In this document: piece after piece, positions 3,605 to 31,908 of the stretch
Numbering within the stretch: position 1 is the stretch's first letter
How the letters are laid out: each line of letters begins with the position of its first letter
Virus record (IMG/VR): IMGVR_UViG_3300036861_000148
Location: 1-31,908 of that record
Reading direction: 5' to 3' (one strand)
DNA: 31,908 bases
DNA from: a virus
Program-made: the position numbers and the translations under genes
The notes under the pieces: generated by a model
What the model saw: the letters and a program-made list of their open reading frames with translations, nothing else
Databases searched by the model: none
What the model was told of the DNA's origin: nothing

Positions 3605-4327
3605 CTAGCTTCCGAGGTTGGTCACGGTAGCCATGTCGCCCTCGGTGGGGATGGTTTGGTTCGGGCCACCCTCCATGAGCGTGGGAGTGAGTGGATCTCC
3701 CTCGGAAAGGAACACAACAAGCCCACCGAGGACGGTGATGGTTTGACCTGTCCATGTGATGATTCCGGCATCAATCGAGACGAGGACGGGGCCTGATTCA
3801 GATACGGTGATGGTTTGACCAGCCCAAGTAACGGTCCCTGCGGTAATCAGGATGGCGCTTGTGAAGGTGACAGCGCCGCCGGTCCAGGTGATTACCCCGG
3901 CGGTAATCGGCACGGCGGTAGCGGTCTGCACCGTTATCGTCTGGCCGGTCCAGGTAATGGCCCCCTGGGTTATGAGGATGCCTGACGTTAGGGTGATCGT
4001 CTGTCCCGACCAAGTGACCGCACCAGCGGTGATGGCAAGAGATTGTGTGAGGTTGATTGTCGAACCAGTCCAGGTAATCGCGCCAGCGGTGATGGGGACG
4101 ACGGTGGAAACCTGGACGGTAACATCCTGGCCTGTCCAGGTAACGGCACCAGCCGTTATCGCAAGGGCTTGTGTGAAGGTAACAGCCTGACCCGTCCAAG
4201 TGATTACGCCAGCATCGACGGCGATGAACGACTCTCCGGCTGGAACAGCGCGGTCATAGAGGTCGGCACCACGGGGAAGCGGTGATCCGACGCTTCTACG
4301 ATTACGGCCTATCGCTGTCCTAGCCAT
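3605..4327 (-). CDS. Tandem-repeat beta protein (eight ITAGxITWTGQ repeats)
   Basis: 240-aa protein dominated by eight tandem repeats of 20-24 residues, consensus [AP]ITAGAITWTGQTITVxxxx, at about residues 34-205. The N-terminus is basic (MARTAIGRNRRSV) and the C-terminus loses the repeat. Similar 'AGxYxLTGQ' repeats occur in uncharacterised proteins of many phage head-tail regions; they probably form an extended beta structure or decoration. No enzyme motif is visible. The gene starts with ATG at 4327, which overlaps the upstream stop. Confidence 0.7.
   Translation of the reverse strand: MARTAIGRNRRSVGSPLPRGADLYDRAVPAGESFIAVDAGVITWTGQAVTFTQALAITAGAVTWTGQDVTVQVSTVVPITAGAITWTGSTINLTQSLAITAGAVTWSGQTITLTSGILITQGAITWTGQTITVQTATAVPITAGVITWTGGAVTFTSAILITAGTVTWAGQTITVSESGPVLVSIDAGIITWTGQTITVLGGLVVFLSEGDPLTPTLMEGGPNQTIPTEGDMATVTNLGS
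3690..4230 (-). repeat. Array of eight diverged coding repeats (ITWTGQ units)
   Basis: Period is about 60-72 bp, with a recurrent core reading 'ccggtccaggt(g/a)at' on the plus strand (for example near 3889, 3946, 4069, 4132). The repeats keep reading frame and diverge mainly at third positions, so they are selected as protein repeats. Confidence 0.8.
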
Positions 4328-5277: not shown

Positions 5278-5730
5278 TTACTCTTCCCAGATAAACGTGC
5301 CCGCGTACGTATTGGCAGTATCGGTCTGCTCAATCAGGGCAACACCGTTGGCGTCGGATGCTCCAGGGGCGATCCATAAGCCCTTGCCCTCGCCATAGTA
5401 CGTGTAGACGAAGCCTGAGCCGATGGCTGCACCTATCATCGCTACGTCAATATCGCCGGCCTGAATCGTAGGCGCGGTTGAGGAGTAGGTGTGTACGGCT
5501 GTCGCGGTAGGGGCGGTCGTGGTCGGGGTCATGTTGTTCTCGGTAATGGCCGTCCCGGTACCCGCCGTGGTGATCCTGACGATGCGGATGATGGCCGAGT
5601 TGGCGGCCTGGGTGAACAGCTTGATCTCGCGGATGATGGGGTTGTTTGCTGCCGTACCCGACCGCAAACCGGCGATGGGCAGGGTGGCCGTACCGGCTGC
5701 TCCGAAGAAGGCGGCTGAGTAGAGGGCCAT
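5278..5730 (-). CDS. Putative structural protein, unknown
   Basis: 150 aa, beta-rich and threonine-rich: MALYSAAFFGAAGTATLPIA, then IREIKLFTQAANSAIIRIVR and FIWEE at the end. Small phage virion proteins of this kind, with an 'I.EI.LF' core, are often found between capsid and tail genes and are uncharacterised. The start shares its A with the upstream stop (TAATG), so it is co-translated with the 158-aa gene. Confidence 0.6.
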   Translation of the reverse strand: MALYSAAFFGAAGTATLPIAGLRSGTAANNPIIREIKLFTQAANSAIIRIVRITTAGTGTAITENNMTPTTTAPTATAVHTYSSTAPTIQAGDIDVAMIGAAIGSGFVYTYYGEGKGLWIAPGASDANGVALIEQTDTANTYAGTFIWEE

Positions 5731-20924: not shown

Positions 20925-21136
20925 CAGTGAGCCTGCCCGTTCCGGCAGTTCTTGCACTGCGTGAACGTGCTGAGGCTGGCTGACATCGGCGACCCGAAGA
21001 AACGGGGCTGCCAGGTGCCGCAGGTGGGGCAGAGCTGCTCGTAGTAGGCGTGCAGCTCTCCCATCTTCTTGCTGCGAACGGACAGAGCCGTTCGGTTGGA
21101 AACCTGACCATGCAGTTCTTGACGCGTGCGTGTCAT
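20924..21136 (-). CDS. 70-aa zinc-ribbon protein
   Basis: It reads MTRTRQELHGQVSNRTALSV, then CPTCGTWQP ... CKNCRNGQAH. A clean two-CxxC ribbon behind a basic helix, so nucleic-acid binding is plausible. ATG at 21136 overlaps the upstream HTH gene stop (ATGA). Confidence 0.62.
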   Translation of the reverse strand: MTRTRQELHGQVSNRTALSVRSKKMGELHAYYEQLCPTCGTWQPRFFGSPMSASLSTFTQCKNCRNGQAH

Positions 21137-21717
21137 CGAACTTCAACTCCTGAACGGATCTGCAGTTCAAGGCTGATTTCCTCGGCCTTGATCTGCTCGC
21201 GCTGCGTGAATGGTTTGTCCCCGAACTCGCTGCGGATGGTGTCTAGGAACTCCACCATCAGGTCGTAACGGGTGATCCTCGGGGCTGGTGCGGCCTCGAC
21301 CGAGGCGGCCTTGGTCTTGGGCTTGGCGGCAGCGATCTCCGCCTTCACGTCGGCCTCAGTCCACCCGTACTTGTCCTGTAGCTCACGGGCAGCCTGCTCG
21401 AGAACCATGGCAACGCCCTCATCGTTCTTAGGAAGGCGCTTATCTGAACCGCTGCTTTCCATGTTGATTTCGTAGTAGGCCTGGACGAAATCCTGTTCGG
21501 CCGTGGCGGCCGAAGCCTCAATCTTCACTAGAGCCTGGAGGCGGCGGCCTACCGTCCTCTCTCCGATGGAGAAACCAGCCGCTGTAACCTCAGCGGCGAT
21601 AGCCTTGGCACTCCAACCCTCCGCCCTCTTGGCGGCGTATTCCTGGGTGGCCTCGAAGATGAATCCGGCCGAACCCTTCTCCAACTTGGCGCACTTCTGC
21701 GCCCATTTCTCAGCCAC
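21133..21717 (-). CDS. HTH protein, first gene of the leftward early operon
   Basis: 194 aa. An HTH (WSAKAIAAEVTAAGFSIGER TVGRRLQAL, about residues 34-63) follows a short helical start. The middle is helical and acidic (GVAMVLEQAARELQDKYGWT), and the C-terminus is helical (TRYDLMVEFLDTIRSEFGDK). It is divergent from the repressor-like gene, the position of Cro-type or early activators. GTG at 21717 has AAAGGAG 8 bases upstream; longer starts to 21894 would run into the -35 region and lack a site. Confidence 0.7.
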   Translation of the reverse strand: MAEKWAQKCAKLEKGSAGFIFEATQEYAAKRAEGWSAKAIAAEVTAAGFSIGERTVGRRLQALVKIEASAATAEQDFVQAYYEINMESSGSDKRLPKNDEGVAMVLEQAARELQDKYGWTEADVKAEIAAAKPKTKAASVEAAPAPRITRYDLMVEFLDTIRSEFGDKPFTQREQIKAEEISLELQIRSGVEVR

Positions 21718-21761: not shown

Positions 21762-21828
21762 CGGACCGGGAGGGGTGTCTCAACGCCATGCGAGCGGAGG
21801 GCTCCCAAAGGAGCGGCCTCCCGGCCCG
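21762..21828. repeat. Imperfect 12-bp inverted repeat flanking an operator-like site
   Basis: CGGACCGGGAGG (21762-21773) pairs with CCTCCCGGCCCG (21817-21828), 11 of 12 bases, across a 43-bp spacer. The spacer holds the operator-like copy at 21782 and an inner GCTCC-CAAA-GGAGC hairpin. It could fold in the leftward leader mRNA. Confidence 0.5.
21782..21794 (+). promoter_or_regulatory. Operator-like repeat copy 1 (AACGCCATGCGAG)
   Basis: One of three copies in the divergent control region; identical to 21977-21989. It contains a short CGC-CAT-GCG dyad. It lies in the leader of the leftward early operon. Confidence 0.6.
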
Positions 21829-21849: not shown

Positions 21850-21862
21850 CTCGCATGACGTT
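21850..21862 (-). promoter_or_regulatory. Operator-like repeat copy 2 (AACGTCATGCGAG, inverted)
   Basis: Same motif as copies 1 and 3 with one change, in opposite orientation. It covers the expected start of transcription from the leftward promoter with -10 at 21866-21871, the classic place for repression. Confidence 0.6.
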
Positions 21863-21865
21863 GCA

Positions 21866-21894
21866 AGGATGCCATGGCAGGGGGCCGGTGTCAA
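21866..21894 (-). promoter_or_regulatory. Candidate leftward early promoter (TTGACA - 17 bp - CATCCT)
   Basis: On the minus strand a perfect -35 TTGACA (21894-21889) is followed after 17 bp by CATCCT (21871-21866; 3 of 6 matches). It points into the early operon and its start region coincides with operator copy 2. Confidence 0.5.
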
Positions 21895-21976: not shown

Positions 21977-21989
21977 AACGCCATGCGAG
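21977..21989 (+). promoter_or_regulatory. Operator-like repeat copy 3 (AACGCCATGCGAG)
   Basis: Identical to 21782-21794. It lies 21 bp upstream of the ATG of the HTH-metzincin gene, in its 5' leader, so binding here could give autoregulation. Confidence 0.6.
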
Positions 21990-22010: not shown

Positions 22011-22880
22011 ATGACCCAGGAACAGGTGGAAGACCTGGTCCGGACCATCCTTCTTGAGAAGAAGGGCTGGGCCGAGAGGCTGCCCATCATCCGCGAGGAG
22101 ATGAAGCGGCTGAGCATCAGCCAGTTCGATCTCACGAGCTGGCTACGGGAGCAGGGAATCAGAACCGGCCGTGGGCCGGTGTCCAATGACACCGTGGGCC
22201 GGTGGCTCCGGGGATCGGACCCCGGTGTCGATGCTCAGGACGCCATCGTAGATATGCTGGTCGAGGCCAGTATGGGGAAGTGGTCTAAGGCCAGGTACCT
22301 CAGTTGGCACCGGGTGGCCGATGCCATCCGCCCTACCCTCTCCCCCCGAAGGTGGGCACTCGCTGCGGTACTTGCGGGGCTGTTCCTGACCATCCTTCCT
22401 AACCCGGCTTGGGCCCTGACCGACTATGGCCCGGGCTCCGGGGCCGAGGCCTCGAGCACCCCGACGACCTACACCATGCCTATTCCGGTAGTGGACGGAC
22501 TGATCGGTACCCTGAACGCCAAGCATCGGAAGATCTGGCGGCAGGCCAGGAACACCGCCCTTGCCAACTGGACCACAGGATGCGTGTCCTTCACGGTGAC
22601 CTCGGGATCGACAGATCTTATCTCTGGCACGATTACCCTCTCGCGTGGATCTCAGGATTGGGGTGGCTGGGACGATGTCTCAGGCGGTGGCTACGCCCGC
22701 TTCGCACCATGGCGGGGATGGTGGGACGACTTCTACGCTAAGCACCAGCTCAAGGGTCTCATCGGCCATGAGGTCGGGCACGCCCTTGGCTTCGGTCATG
22801 GCGGCAACGGCATCATGATGCTGGATACCAACGTGCCAAATGCCACCGACCTCTCCCTACTCCGCTCGTACTACTGCTGA
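22011..22880 (+). CDS. Membrane-anchored HTH-metzincin fusion, candidate lysogeny repressor
   Basis: 289 aa in three parts. Residues ~30-70 (LSISQFDLTSWLREQGIRTG then VSNDTVGRWLRG) look like an HTH of the repressor type. Residues ~113-135 (RRWALAAVLAGLFLTILPNP AWA) are a membrane segment with inside-positive RR and an AxA site. Residues ~155-289 are a metzincin-like protease with HEVGHALGFGH (zinc ligands H253, H257, H263; E254) and a Met-turn GIMM. The predicted topology is HTH in, protease out. The position divergent from the early operon and before the integrase is that of a CI repressor. ATG at 22011 has GAGGAG 8 bases upstream. An internal ATG at 22272 could make a plain secreted form. 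DNA binding and protease targets are inference. Confidence 0.75.
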   Translation: MTQEQVEDLVRTILLEKKGWAERLPIIREEMKRLSISQFDLTSWLREQGIRTGRGPVSNDTVGRWLRGSDPGVDAQDAIVDMLVEASMGKWSKARYLSWHRVADAIRPTLSPRRWALAAVLAGLFLTILPNPAWALTDYGPGSGAEASSTPTTYTMPIPVVDGLIGTLNAKHRKIWRQARNTALANWTTGCVSFTVTSGSTDLISGTITLSRGSQDWGGWDDVSGGGYARFAPWRGWWDDFYAKHQLKGLIGHEVGHALGFGHGGNGIMMLDTNVPNATDLSLLRSYYC

Positions 22881-23801: not shown

Positions 23802-23963
23802 ATGAACAGAATTCTGCTATGGCCCTGGGCCTTCATCAAGTGGCTGGGTCGTGTCTTGTTGTGGCTTGTGTTCCTGCCGGTGGGCATCTGGCGGTCGATC
23901 CGCCATAGCCGGAAGAAGGCGGTAGCCGAGGCGGTCAGGGCTTCCAGATCCTCGGAGGCTTGA
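23802..23963 (+). CDS. 53-aa membrane protein after the integrase
   Basis: It reads MNRILLWPWAFIKWLGRVLL WLVFLPVGIW, a tryptophan-rich membrane segment, then a basic cytoplasmic tail (RSIRHSRKKAVAEAVRASRS). GAGGAG lies 6 bases before ATG. Last gene of the rightward block; its 3' end overlaps the end of the exonuclease gene on the other strand by 29 bases. Possibly a lysogenic conversion or exclusion protein; no family is recognised. Confidence 0.55.
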   Translation: MNRILLWPWAFIKWLGRVLLWLVFLPVGIWRSIRHSRKKAVAEAVRASRSSEA

Positions 23964-26769: not shown

Positions 26770-27591
26770 TCACGCGTTGGTTGTCGGTGGCCCCGCTACT
26801 TCCACCGTTGGATGGCTATGGCTTCCCACGCTGATGGTAGTTGGCTGGGGGAGCGTAGCGGCCGTAGCAATGCGCTTCTCGGTTCTCCAACCACGCTTCT
26901 TATCAGCCGACCAGTCTGGGTTGATCTCTTTGCCAGCCAAGAATGCGTCCTGTCCGTCTGCGAATTCAGCGAATGCCATTTCATCGGAGCCTGAGTCACC
27001 AGTCACGTCGAGCACCATTCGGAATAGCTGCGCATACTCAAGGGAGCCGGGGTCCCAGTGGTCGTTGTCGGGAATATCCACGTGGCCGTACACGCCGGCA
27101 GTACTAGGCCACAAGTTAGCTTGTCGCCGGTAGTAGGTGCTCGTTGCCTGCGGTCCCCGATCCAGCTTGTCAGCCCAGTTGGTGGGCCGTGTCACCGCCG
27201 ATTTCACCAAGCCCCGCTGTTGGAACCAAGCCATCAGTGCGACGAGCGGGCCGAGTGACCCGGGCTTGGGCAGCCACAAGTCGAGCTGTGACCGCCCTAC
27301 GATCTCGATCTGCATGGCGTAGGGGTCGTTGGTCGTATCGCCCTTCAGCGCCTCGCCCTTGGCCCATAGCGGCCGGTGCTGACCGATGATCCCCTCGCCT
27401 ACCTGCCACTGGGATGGATACTCGAGGTGCTCGACATAGCCATCTGTTTCAGTCGTGTGCAAAACAAGGTTGGGTTTAACTTGGGCCAGCGAATAGTAAG
27501 GCCCCTGGGCGAAACGTTTAATTGGGTACTCCTTATCCCCGGGACCGGGGAGTGTCCCGCTAACCCATCCCTCACTGATGGTTACGCTCAT
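26770..27591 (-). CDS. Endolysin, N-acetylmuramoyl-L-alanine amidase (PGRP/Amidase_2)
   Basis: 273 aa. It cuts the bond between MurNAc and the stem peptide at lysis. Zinc ligands fit H45 in LVLHTTET, H170 in GVYGHVDIP and D180 in DHWDPG; AMQIEIVG is the conserved central strand. After residue ~195 a short region (MAFAEFADGQDAFLAGKEIN) and a Pro/Thr-rich tail follow, perhaps for binding. The start overlaps the metzincin stop (ATGA), so both are made together. No signal peptide, so a holin is needed. Confidence 0.88.
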   Translation of the reverse strand: MSVTISEGWVSGTLPGPGDKEYPIKRFAQGPYYSLAQVKPNLVLHTTETDGYVEHLEYPSQWQVGEGIIGQHRPLWAKGEALKGDTTNDPYAMQIEIVGRSQLDLWLPKPGSLGPLVALMAWFQQRGLVKSAVTRPTNWADKLDRGPQATSTYYRRQANLWPSTAGVYGHVDIPDNDHWDPGSLEYAQLFRMVLDVTGDSGSDEMAFAEFADGQDAFLAGKEINPDWSADKKRGWRTEKRIATAATLPQPTTISVGSHSHPTVEVAGPPTTNA

Positions 27592-28097
27592 GCCAGATAC
27601 GCCTCTCTCACGCTGGATAGGTCAAGCTCGTCTGGACCCATCTTGATGGCCGGCGATCTCATGCAGGTCTTATCTGGATAGGGCCGATGATCCAATCCGA
27701 GGATGTGCCCGAACTCATGGGCGAGGGTGTACTGCACATGGCTCAGCGGGCAGTCCTTGCTGATCCACACATCCGCCGAGCCCACTAGATTGCCGGGATA
27801 GACATGGGGATTCATGTAGCCGTACCAGTTCTGCCCCGGTGTCTCCTTGACCGGGTCCTGCACGCTCACTTGAAGCACCCCTGTAGCTGCGGGGTAGATG
27901 TAAGGGGTGTCGGGCTCGAAGCTAGTAGTGAATGCCACTACACCGCTCTGTGCCCATTGGTCGCAGGCCCAACGTACTGCCCTGCGCCATGTTGCGGGAC
28001 TCCATCTCCACTTCTTAGGGTCCACTGCACTGAGCACCTTCACGACGCGGACCTCACGATTGTTAGTGGGATCCCAGGCCCAATAAACTTCTCTCAC
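27588..28097 (-). CDS. Second metzincin (matrixin-like) metalloprotease
   Basis: 169 aa. It carries HEFGHILGLDH (H127, E128, H131, G134, H137) and a downstream Met in TCMRSP as Met-turn. The N-terminal part has WSPATWRRAVRWACDQWAQS, the helix-then-strand order of matrixin domains. No signal peptide or membrane segment is present. It lies between a fibre-like gene and the endolysin, so it may be a tail-associated protease acting on surface proteins or a lysis factor. GTG at 28097 overlaps the previous stop (GTGA). Confidence 0.8.
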   Translation of the reverse strand: MREVYWAWDPTNNREVRVVKVLSAVDPKKWRWSPATWRRAVRWACDQWAQSGVVAFTTSFEPDTPYIYPAATGVLQVSVQDPVKETPGQNWYGYMNPHVYPGNLVGSADVWISKDCPLSHVQYTLAHEFGHILGLDHRPYPDKTCMRSPAIKMGPDELDLSSVREAYLA

Positions 28098-28627
28098 GCC
28101 AGCTTGACGCCCCAAAGCGTCGAATTAGTCTTTACCGTTGTTGCGGTAGCGTTCGAGGTGTTTTGCGCCCACCGGTAAGTGATCACACCGGCGGTTCCCG
28201 CATTGATATAGAGAACCTCGACAGGAACCAACTTTGTGTTATCCAAAATGGCCGTCTGTGTAGGGGTATCCGATGCTGTTAGTTCGTCATCCTGCACGTA
28301 TACGCTTCCTGTGGCGCTATTCGAGGTGGAGGTCATGTCAAGTGTTCCGCCCGCTGGAAACGAAAATGTGTGCTTTAGGTCTCCACCGGATATGCCGCTG
28401 ACACGAATACGTAATTGAAACCACCAGACCTCATTAGCAGCGATTGATGGGGTTACGAGCGCCGAATCACTTACCAGCGTTGTCGATGAGGTAACCGACT
28501 GATCTGAGGTTTTCCGCACAAGTAGGTGGGGACCGAAGGAGAGCTGGTTGTCGCGGATATAGGTGTTGAAGTTCGCCGCCGTCAGCGTCTCGCCGGCACT
28601 CCAGGTTTTCGGTGCTGTGAAACCCAT
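28094..28627 (-). CDS. Tail fibre / minor tail protein
   Basis: 177 aa. It starts MGFTAPKTWSAGETLTAANF NTYIRDN, the hallmark opening of many siphovirus minor tail or receptor-binding proteins, then a beta-rich C-terminal part (TASDTPTQTAILDNTKLVPV, ending WGVKLA). It is expected at the tail tip, contacting the host. Seven bases separate it from the 841-aa tail gene. Confidence 0.75.
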   Translation of the reverse strand: MGFTAPKTWSAGETLTAANFNTYIRDNQLSFGPHLLVRKTSDQSVTSSTTLVSDSALVTPSIAANEVWWFQLRIRVSGISGGDLKHTFSFPAGGTLDMTSTSNSATGSVYVQDDELTASDTPTQTAILDNTKLVPVEVLYINAGTAGVITYRWAQNTSNATATTVKTNSTLWGVKLA

Positions 28628-28634
28628 TTATCTC

Positions 28635-31160
28635 CTACCTAAGAATCGCTGTTGAATCCAGCAGGCCATACACCGGGTCATCCAGGACGCCTGCCACGAT
28701 CAGACTGCTCGGTGCCACTGCAAGCGTTACGGTCCATGACCCGTCACGACCGATATCGTGGGAGAGTCCTTCGATAGATGAGATTTGGGATGTGGCCGTC
28801 TGGGATTCGATGACCTTGGTGATGTCGTTGATGTCCCGCACCAGGACTCGGTCCCAGAGGTCGTGTTGCATCGCGTTATCAACCAGACTTTCGAGCCGAA
28901 GAACGGGCTGGGCATAGCGCCCAATCTGGGCCGTAGCTCGATCTAGGACCGCTGCATCGGATACAAGTTGGATATCCGTTTCCGAACTTGAGCGGATGCC
29001 ATATTGGGTTTTGGACGCCTCGTCTGTGGCAACCTGCTCAACTCCTCCCGCCCGAGTCAGATGCACATCATTGAGAATCAAGTCATCACTCAGGGTGGGC
29101 ACGATTTCTCGGTAGCTCATCCCGGTGCCATCATCGGCCCATATGCGGGTTGAGATATCTGGATTTGTCTCCACATCCTGCCGAAAGACCGCCTTCCCGT
29201 CCTTACCGATGAAGAACCGGCCGCCCTCAGCATGGGCTATCTGCTGGATATGCTCGAGTGCTGAAACGTTGTCCAGCGTGATCGCTGGAACCGTTGCGGT
29301 GCCAACATCGATATCTCGATCATGGGATTCGACTAATACCTTCAATTCGGCAGCGATACCGAGGTAGCCCCGGCTAACTCCGTCCCAAGTAGCGGAAGCC
29401 GTCGTCTCGAAAGCATCGCTTCTATATTGCGTTTCTAGAATTCGGATACCCGTCAAGGGCGTTTCGTCTGCCTCGGTCCAACTAGCCCTTGGTGTTATGC
29501 CCTGCACGTTGATGGTCCATGCAGATATTGGGCGGTTGTTTGTATTGGCTGGAGCGGCAAGTGTAATGCTCCCAGAGGTTGCAGTTGCGTCTACGGTTGG
29601 AGCCTGTACGAAGGCGGCGGGCACGCCGGTCGATAAGTCCACGCCGTCTGCGTGCATGAATGCCATGTGGATCGAGGTCTGAGACTGCCCCCCGAAATCG
29701 ACGGTGGTTGTTCCAGTAGTAGAACCGGATGCTTTAGCACCAAATAAGGTCATGCGCCGGCTTGCGCCAGAGTTCACGATCGTAGCTATGTTTACCCAGG
29801 TTAGGTTGTTTCCTGTGACTGTTGGGATATTCGGGGCTGTCGCCAGCACGCTCACTACGTAGAGGATAATGAGGCCGCTTGTTGGAGGCGTCCAACTGCT
29901 ATTGGTAAGAGAGGTGCCGCTACTTGCCCACGCATCGGGATTGCTGGTCGCACCAAGGTTGTCGAATGTGATCGGCGTGACGTCAATGGTGTTTGGCCAA
30001 TTCACTGCATCAAGGATGGCATTGATCCTTGCTCCGCTTCCCTGTTGAGAGAAGCTTCCAGAGACATTGGCCAGGGATAGCATCTTCATGCCGTCGACGA
30101 GGGACACCCTGGTTTCCATGTCCTTGTCACCAGGGAAAGCGACGGGCCACTCTTCCACGAATCCGGTGAGTACTGGATATGTAATTGCGTTATCGCTCTT
30201 CAGCTCGGCGGCAATGCCTTCCCAGTCACGTGCTGCCCCATCCCACGTAGCAGAAGCGGTTGTCTCAAATGCGTCAGGTCGTTCCTGTGTTTTGAGCTTA
30301 TGATAGCTTGCTGATCCAGCAGTCAACGTGTCGAACTCAATCCAGTTAGTTCGTGGTGTCATGGGTACGTTGCCCACGGCGAAAGCAGCTATAGGTCGAT
30401 TAGCACTATTACCAGCCGCTGACAAAGTAATCGAGGCAGATGTCTGCGCAGTACCGAAGCCAGTTGGGGCTTGCACAAAAGCTCCAGCCACGCCACCACC
30501 AAGATCAACCCCATCTGCATGCATGAATGCCATCTTGACATTAGCCTGAGACTGCCCAGCAAAGTCTGCTGTCGTGGCTCCCACAGAAGCCCCAGACGCA
30601 TCCGCACCAAAGAGCGTCATGCGAGTATTGGCGGTGCCCAAAACAGTTGCAATCTGGACCCAGGTAATTCCATTGCCACTCACCGTGGGTACGTTGGGGG
30701 TACCAACGAAGTTATTCAGGACGAACAGAACGATGAGCCCGCTCGTGGGTGGACCCCAACTTGTGTTGCTAAGAGAAGTGCCGGAACCCTCGGCATCGGG
30801 ATTGTCACTAGCGCCGAGATTGTTGAGGGCGATAAAGCGTGGCCATGTCCCACTAATGCGGATACGCCGCATCGGGAGGATGTACGGGTAGTAGGGTGAA
30901 GCAGAGTTGAATGGCGTGAATCGTCCATCTCGATTGTCCAGGGCGACGCTGCCTGTTCCAGCTTCAACCCGCTCGAGTTCACGATTAGCCCCACGGTGAG
31001 TCGATGCTTCCCGAACATAGGGCGTGATGTCCTGGCTAAAGGTTGGGGTGATTGGGCCGAGAACGGCCGAGTCAAGCTGAGCATTTGTAGCGTCGTCCAG
31101 CTGCGCCCCACTGATGTAGCCGCCGAGATCGAGCGCAACCGTAAGCGTCGGGGTACTCAT
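28635..31160 (-). CDS. Tail-tip/baseplate protein with duplicated inserted domain
   Basis: 841 aa. The framework (residues ~35-108, ~323-397 and ~610-841) resembles siphovirus tail-tip proteins: TPTFSQDITPYVREASTHRG, VALDNRDGRFTPFNSASPYY, then VSALEHIQQIAHAEGGRFFI GKDGK. Into it are inserted two copies of a ~210-aa jelly-roll-like domain, at residues ~110-322 and ~398-609. They share MTLFGA, MAFMHADGVDL, AFVQAPT and RxDAFETTASATWDG. The inserted domains are probably host- or sugar-binding. ATG at 31160 overlaps the tape measure stop. The gene is intact. Confidence 0.75.
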   Translation of the reverse strand: MSTPTLTVALDLGGYISGAQLDDATNAQLDSAVLGPITPTFSQDITPYVREASTHRGANRELERVEAGTGSVALDNRDGRFTPFNSASPYYPYILPMRRIRISGTWPRFIALNNLGASDNPDAEGSGTSLSNTSWGPPTSGLIVLFVLNNFVGTPNVPTVSGNGITWVQIATVLGTANTRMTLFGADASGASVGATTADFAGQSQANVKMAFMHADGVDLGGGVAGAFVQAPTGFGTAQTSASITLSAAGNSANRPIAAFAVGNVPMTPRTNWIEFDTLTAGSASYHKLKTQERPDAFETTASATWDGAARDWEGIAAELKSDNAITYPVLTGFVEEWPVAFPGDKDMETRVSLVDGMKMLSLANVSGSFSQQGSGARINAILDAVNWPNTIDVTPITFDNLGATSNPDAWASSGTSLTNSSWTPPTSGLIILYVVSVLATAPNIPTVTGNNLTWVNIATIVNSGASRRMTLFGAKASGSTTGTTTVDFGGQSQTSIHMAFMHADGVDLSTGVPAAFVQAPTVDATATSGSITLAAPANTNNRPISAWTINVQGITPRASWTEADETPLTGIRILETQYRSDAFETTASATWDGVSRGYLGIAAELKVLVESHDRDIDVGTATVPAITLDNVSALEHIQQIAHAEGGRFFIGKDGKAVFRQDVETNPDISTRIWADDGTGMSYREIVPTLSDDLILNDVHLTRAGGVEQVATDEASKTQYGIRSSSETDIQLVSDAAVLDRATAQIGRYAQPVLRLESLVDNAMQHDLWDRVLVRDINDITKVIESQTATSQISSIEGLSHDIGRDGSWTVTLAVAPSSLIVAGVLDDPVYGLLDSTAILR
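29334..29969 (-). repeat. Inserted domain copy 2 of the tail-tip protein
   Basis: It encodes residues ~398-609. It aligns along its whole length with copy 1 (for example MAFMHADGVDL and DAFETTASATWDG identical), with many substitutions between, so the duplication is old or the copies were acquired separately. Confidence 0.75.
30195..30833 (-). repeat. Inserted domain copy 1 of the tail-tip protein
   Basis: It encodes residues ~110-322. See copy 2 at 29334-29969. Together the two copies are about half of the protein. Confidence 0.75.
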
Positions 31161-31908
31161 AAGCCAGTAGTAGCGTTCCTGGCCTTCAACTTAAGTAGGC
31201 CATCACGGACCTTGCGGACTACTTCCTCACCGGTTACGTCACCGTTGATGATTATGGTGAGGCCACCACCGAAGCCCATCTCGTTATTTACACCGCTAAA
31301 GACTTCGCCCTTATGAACCAGTGCCAGGCCGGTGCTAAGCACTTCACCGCCATGCTGGAGGCCGCCGGCTCTCCGTGGGCCATGAGGGGCCAGGGTCGTG
31401 GTACCGCTGCCGATGTGCGCGAGGTCCGTAATGAAATCAATGGCCGTTTTCACGGCGTCGATGATGCGCTGAATCCATCCAAGAATATTATCGATGACGG
31501 CCTTGATCGGGCCGAGGATGAATTGCCACGCTTCGACAAAACGGTCTTTGATCCAGCCAACCACCTTGCCGATAACGTCGATAATGCGCCCGAAGAAGTT
31601 GACAATTGGTTCCACGAACTTGTCTCGGAGGAACGTCACCACGGACAAAGCGGCCGTAATGATCTTGGCAAGCCATTCAATGAGCTTGGTGATGAGGAAA
31701 ATGACGATGGGGAGGACTTCCGTTATCACCTTGAACGCTATGTACAGTTGAATACCGATGACGATGGCCAGGGGCTTGAAGACATCCCAGAGCTTCTTGA
31801 GTAGGGTCCACAATGCGGCGAACATCGGGCCAAGATTTGATTGAAGAACATGCCAGACCTGGGTGGCGGCCTCCACAAGATCCTTGCCCATGGATATCGC
31901 CACGGGCC
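31157..31908 (-). CDS. Tape measure protein, C-terminal part (continues from base 1)
   Basis: This is the C-terminal part of the tape measure gene that starts at 928. It includes the 81-base overlap; without it the part is 31157-31827. The sequence is strongly hydrophobic in the middle (IVIGIQLYIAF, VLPIVIFLITKLIEWL), then helical repeats (DKFVEPIVNFFGRIIDVIGK, WILGPIKAVIDNILGWIQRI) and a glycine-rich end (GVNNEMGFGGGLTIIINGDV) common near the C-terminus of phage tape measures. The stop overlaps the ATG of the next tail gene by 4 bases (ATGA at 31157-31160). Confidence 0.9.
   Translation of the reverse strand, partial: PVAISMGKDLVEAATQVWHVLQSNLGPMFAALWTLLKKLWDVFKPLAIVIGIQLYIAFKVITEVLPIVIFLITKLIEWLAKIITAALSVVTFLRDKFVEPIVNFFGRIIDVIGKVVGWIKDRFVEAWQFILGPIKAVIDNILGWIQRIIDAVKTAIDFITDLAHIGSGTTTLAPHGPRRAGGLQHGGEVLSTGLALVHKGEVFSGVNNEMGFGGGLTIIINGDVTGEEVVRKVRDGLLKLKARNATTGL
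31828..31908. repeat. Terminal direct repeat (circle-closing overlap), right copy
   Basis: Exact copy of bases 1-81. It lies inside the tape-measure gene on the minus strand. Confidence 0.95.

What the first reader, a model, noticed from the sequence alone, without database searches (positions are those of the whole stretch)
22011..22880. One protein joins a repressor-like HTH, a membrane anchor and an outside metzincin protease
Seen: a single uninterrupted 289-aa frame with an HTH-like N-terminus, RR plus a hydrophobic segment ending in AWA, and HEVGHALGFGH with a Met-turn. It sits where temperate phages keep the CI repressor, next to an integrase and facing a leftward early operon with repeated operators. 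Known: phage repressor control by metalloproteases (ImmR/ImmA, DdrO/IrrE type) uses cytoplasmic HExxH proteases acting on a separate or fused XRE protein. Here the family is a metzincin and the predicted topology puts it outside the cell. Inference: an outside signal, substrate, self-cleavage, or cut at the AxA site could release or destroy the tethered DNA-binding part and so switch lysogeny to lysis. I do not know of a described system of this layout.
Basis: partly seen in the sequence, partly recalled or inferred. Interest (0 to 1): 0.87.

Follow-up and report, generated by a model that had tools for sequence, protein, structure and literature searches.

The report
Phage repressor fused to exported protease
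In a temperate phage, the gene in the place of the lysogeny repressor encodes one protein with a repressor-like DNA-binding part at the start and an exported zinc protease at the end, a combination for which I found no described system, so a virus may tie its lysogeny switch to an enzyme outside the cell.

Summary
The 289-aa frame (22011-22880) is real. A full-length relative with the same order (HTH, signal-type hydrophobic segment, metzincin, then integrase) lies in a second phage contig (64% identity), and both halves are under purifying selection. The N-terminal 109 residues model as a lambda-repressor/XRE-like fold. The control region carries three operator-like copies (+,-,+) in both phages, with a different sequence in each but the same geometry. 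The gene fills the repressor slot upstream of a tyrosine integrase, as in actinophages with integration-dependent immunity. A third phage keeps the HTH part (98% identical over the 41 residues present) but has no exported protease. So this is very probably the immunity repressor, joined to an exported metzincin. The conserved AxA suggests signal peptidase releases the protease outside, leaving the HTH on a short membrane stub. What the protease cuts, and whether it feeds back on repression, is unknown. No attachment site was found inside the gene. The family is tiny: three contigs in 2.9 million viral ones, none in reference phages or in 84,980 genomes at the sensitivity used. Nothing has been tested at the bench.

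The parts
22011..22880 (+). 289-aa gene: HTH domain, signal-type hydrophobic segment, metzincin
   Evidence: full-length homologue L002:6001-6945, 64% identity
22068..22271 (+). HTH domain core, residues 20-87; predicted recognition helix at residues 59-66
   Evidence: AF2 model of residues 1-109, pLDDT 75, pTM 0.69; PDB fold matches HipB, P22 c2, TP901-1 CI, POU-specific
22263..22274 (+). possible internal ribosome site GAGG (22263-22266) and start ATG (22272)
   Evidence: sequence; codon is TTG in L002 and L003
22342..22347 (+). C6 tract at the HTH/export junction, the only homopolymer run of 5 or more in the gene; also present at this junction in both relatives
22347..22415 (+). signal-type segment, residues 113-135 (RR, 15-residue h-region, AWA); predicted cleavage after residue 135
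   Evidence: A133 and A135 conserved in L002
22416..22877 (+). ectodomain, residues 136-289, two conserved cysteines (191, 289)
22767..22799 (+). zinc site HEVGHALGFGH (residues 253-263)
   Evidence: invariant except V/L in L002
22815..22820 (+). Met-turn (M269-M270)
21782..21794 (+). operator-like repeat O1 AACGCCATGCGAG
21850..21862 (-). operator-like repeat O2 AACGTCATGCGAG, about 30 nt downstream of a leftward TTGACA
21977..21989 (+). operator-like repeat O3 AACGCCATGCGAG, 21 nt before the gene's ATG
21889..21894 (-). leftward TTGACA (-35 candidate), matched by an aligned TGTCAAGG in L002
21956..21961 (-). leftward TTGACA (-35 candidate), matched by an aligned TGTCAAGAT in L002
22942..23790 (+). 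tyrosine integrase, downstream of and codirectional with the fusion gene
   Evidence: Pfam PF00589 E=2.9e-21; PHROG 1 E=3e-51
21133..21717 (-). first divergent early gene (likely GTG start 21717), HTH-like protein in the Cro position
   Evidence: start chosen from its Shine-Dalgarno AAAGGAG (inference from sequence)

Best explanation
The gene is the phage's immunity (lysogeny) repressor, translationally fused to an exported metzincin. The XRE-like N-terminal domain stays in the cytoplasm and binds three operators between itself and the leftward early operon, shutting off early genes and limiting its own expression. The hydrophobic segment sends the C-terminal half through the Sec pathway. Signal peptidase I most likely cuts after the AxA (residue 135), so the disulphide-bonded protease is released or displayed outside, and the HTH remains on a short membrane stub. 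One lysogeny gene would thus give two products with two jobs: repression inside, and a lysogen-specific protease outside (perhaps altering the cell surface or excluding other phages). The shared gene also places the repressor at the membrane and makes its level depend on export. Shown: frame, conservation, modularity, operator repeats. Inferred: DNA binding, export, cleavage, protease activity, role.
For: Full-length homologue in a second phage contig, with purifying selection on the HTH half (dN/dS 0.25) and the ectodomain (0.45). XRE/lambda-repressor-like fold model. Three operator-like repeats, oriented +,-,+, in both phages with different sequence but the same spacing logic; 0 of 120 shuffles of each region gave three. 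Recognition-helix residues differ between the two phages as the operators do. The repressor-then-tyrosine-integrase order, divergent from early genes, is that of phages with the nearest integrases and of Brujita and phiT45-1. A third phage has the HTH part without the protease in the same slot. The AxA and the two ectodomain cysteines are conserved, and the HTH part has no cysteine. Apart from the integrase and a small ORF it is the only + strand gene recognised.
Against: No HTH profile reaches significance by sequence, and Foldseek E-values are above 1. No metzincin profile reaches its curated cut-off (Matrixin 12.8 bits against 24). The hydrophobic segment is short and scores borderline (KD19 1.62 and 1.82), so export is a prediction. 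A membrane-bound phage immunity repressor with no known way of release is unusual. Only two full-length members are known. Neither host nor prophage state is known.
Confidence: 0.5

Rival explanations
1. One reading: the tethered repressor is regulated from outside. The metzincin senses or cuts something (or itself), or the stub is removed by intramembrane proteolysis, so that the HTH is released or destroyed and lysogeny flips to lysis.
For: Topology and order of domains; metalloproteases control repressors in ImmA/ImmR and DdrO/IrrE systems (general knowledge).
Against: The protease would lie on the far side of the membrane from the HTH. The conserved signal-peptidase site would separate them constitutively. 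A relative does without the protease.
Confidence: 0.15
2. Integration-dependent immunity: attP lies inside the gene between HTH and export segment, so integration cuts off the protease half. The viral form would be membrane-bound and inactive, the prophage form soluble and active.
For: Same layout and related integrases as phages with attP in rep (PMC4557955, PMC8092301). The third phage's HTH-only tail is about 31 aa and ends GVAA, like an ssrA-type degron. The longest block shared by all three phages is at about 22282-22305, and homology in the third phage weakens sharply just after it.
Against: No tRNA T-arm-like sequence at a plausible site in the gene. The 21-base core of the block has no exact match in 84,980 genomes. 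Excess synonymous conservation is not significant (permutation p 0.21).
Confidence: 0.12
3. Uncoupled products: an internal start at ATG/TTG 22272, or slippage at the C6 tract, makes separate secreted protease and soluble HTH protein, and the fusion is partly incidental.
For: GAGG plus ATG/TTG/TTG start-type codon at the same place in three phages. C6 tract at the junction in all three, in a different codon phase in L002; out-of-frame tails in window and L002 end within 13-21 residues.
Against: TTG is 11% of Leu codons in this phage, so the start-codon match is weak; C6 is short for efficient slippage. In the unslipped frame there is no stop after the HTH, so the full-length chain is always an option.
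Confidence: 0.18
4. The HTH is an excisionase or other recombination directionality factor rather than a repressor.
For: Position beside int; very weak Exc match of the L002 N-terminus (E=0.059).
Against: Lambda-repressor-like fold, divergent operator array at its own promoter, repressor slot in related phages.
Confidence: 0.05

Closest known systems
Integration-dependent immunity repressors of actinophages (BPs gp33, Brujita gp34, M. abscessus prophage Rep)
   Same: Repressor divergent from early genes, tyrosine integrase directly downstream; short HTH protein whose C-terminus has regulatory meaning (PMC4557955, PMC8092301)
   Different: No sequence similarity to Brujita gp34 (hhalign probability 0.8%); C-terminus is an exported metzincin, not a degron; no attP found inside the gene
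Listeria cI-cro/mtz-tim locus of phage origin (PMC8235301)
   Same: Phage regulatory switch genes next to a secreted metzincin; experiments there show a phage-type metzincin acting outside the cell and sensitising it to lysis
   Different: Separate genes, with a TIMP-like partner protein; here repressor and metzincin are one polypeptide and no TIMP-like gene was recognised
ImmR/ImmA and DdrO/IrrE (M78-type) repressor-protease systems
   Same: Phage or mobile-element XRE repressor linked to a zinc peptidase (general knowledge)
   Different: Those peptidases are cytoplasmic and cut the repressor; this one is a metzincin placed beyond a signal sequence
ToxR/CadC-type membrane-tethered one-component regulators
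   Same: Cytoplasmic DNA-binding domain, hydrophobic segment, extracytoplasmic domain in that order (general knowledge)
   Different: Their DNA-binding domain is an OmpR-like winged helix and the outer domain a sensor; here the HTH is XRE-like and the outer domain a protease behind a cleavage site

Membership tests
Phage immunity repressor (XRE/lambda-repressor-like) | HTH of the lambda-repressor fold | tested here: met
   Model and fold search; predicted only, no significant sequence profile and no significant Foldseek E-value
Phage immunity repressor (XRE/lambda-repressor-like) | Located beside int, divergent from early operon, with repeated operators | tested here: met
Phage immunity repressor (XRE/lambda-repressor-like) | Binds operators and gives immunity | not testable with these tools
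   needs bench work
Metzincin metalloprotease | HExxHxxGxxH zinc motif and downstream Met-turn | tested here: met
   Residues 253-263 and 269-270, conserved in L002; leading PDB sequence matches are metzincins though none significant
Metzincin metalloprotease | Reaches a curated metzincin family cut-off | tested here: not met
   Pfam Peptidase_M10 12.8 bits against 24, Metallopep 15 against 27
Integration-dependent immunity system | Tyrosine integrase directly downstream of rep | tested here: met
Integration-dependent immunity system | attP inside the repressor gene | tested here: inconclusive
   No tRNA-like core; conserved 21-mer absent from genome contigs; host unknown
Integration-dependent immunity system | C-terminal ssrA-like -AA tag on viral form (typical, not universal) | tested here: not met
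   Ends SYYC; L002 ends YYCDP; only the HTH-only relative L003 ends VAA
ImmA/IrrE-type (M78) repressor protease | Cytoplasmic HExxH peptidase acting on repressor | tested here: not met
   Extended metzincin motif after a signal-type segment; no M78 match
ToxR/CadC-type tethered regulator | OmpR-type winged-helix DNA-binding domain | tested here: not met
   Fold matches are lambda-repressor-like

The most novel reading that the evidence does not exclude
A phage lysogeny repressor that is a membrane-tethered protein with its own protease outside the cell, so that export, signal-peptidase cleavage or ectoprotease action controls repressor activity and couples the lysis-lysogeny decision to the cell surface.
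Probability: 0.25. Interest if true: 0.88.

Novelty: new variant of a known kind. Interest (0 to 1): 0.66.

Why it matters
Known phage repressor control acts in the cytoplasm (RecA, ImmA, antirepressors, degrons, small peptides taken up). A repressor made as one chain with an exported protease would be a new way to link lysogeny to the envelope, or to guarantee that an exported protease is made only in lysogens. It is small, single-gene and directly testable by DNA binding, topology fusions and active-site mutation.

Tried and rejected
Chance ORF or chimeric assembly: rejected by the L002 homologue. HTH-only guess from reading: replaced by a model and fold search; the full-length single-sequence model was useless (pLDDT 38). 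attP inside rep at the best-conserved block: no exact genome match, no T-arm at a plausible site; one weak match at 22211-22221 is not conserved and would cut the HTH. Synonymous-site excess at codons 82-100: not significant. Homology to the Brujita repressor: none. More relatives through N-terminal, C-terminal, full-length, L002 and DNA-block scans of IMG/VR, and through phages, plasmids and genome contigs: none beyond L002 and L003. Defence-system membership: no convincing PADLOC match. Literature searches for membrane-bound phage repressors or HTH-metzincin fusions found none, in an open-access library only.

Full report
Observation. The frame 22011-22880 (+) is open for 289 codons from an ATG with a good ribosome site. 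The window is a virus record. Its first and last 81 bases are identical, so it is probably a complete circular genome of 31,827 bp although catalogued as linear. Nearly all recognisable genes run leftward; the recognisable + strand genes are this one, the tyrosine integrase 62 bases downstream and a 53-aa membrane peptide ORF.

Relatives. Scans of 2.9 million viral contigs found two other loci. L002 (contig 25.5 kb) has a 314-aa protein, 64% identical, with the same order of parts and followed by an integrase 85% identical. L003 begins at residue 58 of the protein, where its contig ends. It is 98% identical to residue 98 and recognisably related to about residue 114, then ends in a short basic tail (...RRDRRQHRPIHLGVAA*) with no hydrophobic segment or protease; its integrase lacks the N-terminal domain. 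No match was found in 50,697 phage records, 72,556 plasmids (ectodomain only) or 84,980 genomes at the sensitivity used.

Selection. Between window and L002, dN/dS is 0.25 for codons 1-110, 0.72 for the hydrophobic segment and 0.45 for the ectodomain. In codons 41-70 synonymous sites are saturated while protein change is low. Both halves are therefore translated and useful, and in the unslipped frame there is no stop between them.

N-terminal part. No profile library recognises it. A three-sequence AlphaFold2 model of residues 1-109 has pLDDT 75 (about 88-93 over residues 21-70) and pTM 0.69. Foldseek against the PDB lists HipB (TM 0.71 on the target, 1.8 A over 66 columns), P22 c2, TP901-1 CI and POU-specific domains. 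E-values are above 1, but nearly all matches with probability of at least 0.2 share the lambda-repressor fold, and many of the viral-library matches are XRE proteins. The turn of the HTH carries a small hairpin (residues 50-57).

Control region. The 13-mer AACGYCATGCGAG occurs at 21782 (+), 21850 (-) and 21977 (+). L002 has a different element, TGTCAWGRACGA, at 5730 (+), 5821 (-) and 5955 (+). No triple appeared in 120 shuffles of either region. In both phages the middle copy lies about 30-35 nt downstream of a leftward TTGACA, near the expected transcription start (geometry read from the sequence). Recognition-helix residues differ between the phages (SNDTVGRW and SDATVRRW), as the operators do. 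This is what a repressor diverging together with its operators would show; it is inference, not proof of binding.

Slot. The phages with the nearest integrases (27-28% identity) and Brujita carry an HTH repressor upstream of and codirectional with int and divergent from early genes. Several end in -AA, and the M. abscessus and BPs papers describe integration-dependent immunity with attP inside rep (PMC4557955, PMC8092301, PMC9934374). I tested this for the window: no T-arm-like sequence at a plausible site, and the longest block shared by the three phages has no exact genome match. Membership is therefore not claimed.

Export part. Residues 113-135 have RR, a 15-residue hydrophobic core and AWA; L002 has KR, a hydrophobic core and ASA, and both alanines are conserved in an otherwise fast-changing stretch. 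The ectodomain has exactly two cysteines, conserved, while the HTH part has none, which fits an oxidising outside location. HExxHxxGxxH and a Met-turn are intact in both. Family cut-offs are not reached, but the weak sequence matches are archaemetzincin, astacin-like myroilysin, reprolysin and MMP-1.

Mechanism. The most economical reading is one lysogeny gene with two jobs: an operator-binding domain inside and a protease outside, separated by signal peptidase. The Listeria mtz-tim locus shows that phage-linked metzincins beside cI/cro-type switches can act on the cell envelope (PMC8235301), but those are separate genes. Whether export or proteolysis feeds back on repression is open. An internal start (ATG/TTG/TTG) and a C6 tract at the junction are further ways to uncouple the halves.

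Verdict. Observation confirmed, interpretation partly supported. Architecture new as far as these searches go; the switch model is untested.

Noticed in passing
1-81 and 31828-31908: Exact 81-bp terminal direct repeat, with the tape-measure gene running across the ends: the record is probably a complete circular genome of 31,827 bp.
   Followed up: yes
27588-28115 (-): A second, different metzincin-like ORF (HEFGHILGLDH; NCBIfam MXAN_2677 family E=1.6e-5) directly upstream of the endolysin gene; not found in L002's or L003's contigs.
   Followed up: partly
L003:279-818: Relative's integrase reads MNRE then PEEI: the N-terminal SAM-like domain is missing in frame, next to the protease-less repressor gene.
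   Followed up: partly
22342-22347: C6 tract at the HTH/export junction in all three phages, in a different codon phase in L002: possible slippage site.
   Followed up: partly
23802-23963 (+): Small ORF (53 aa) with one hydrophobic segment and a GAGAGGAG ribosome site just after int; L002 has no room for it.
   Followed up: no
3605-4327 (-): Protein built of about seven imperfect ITAGAVTWTGQ-type repeats, in the structural gene region.
   Followed up: no
28635-31160 (-): 841-aa tail-type protein with an internally duplicated segment (LGASDNPDA.../LGATSNPDA...).
   Followed up: no
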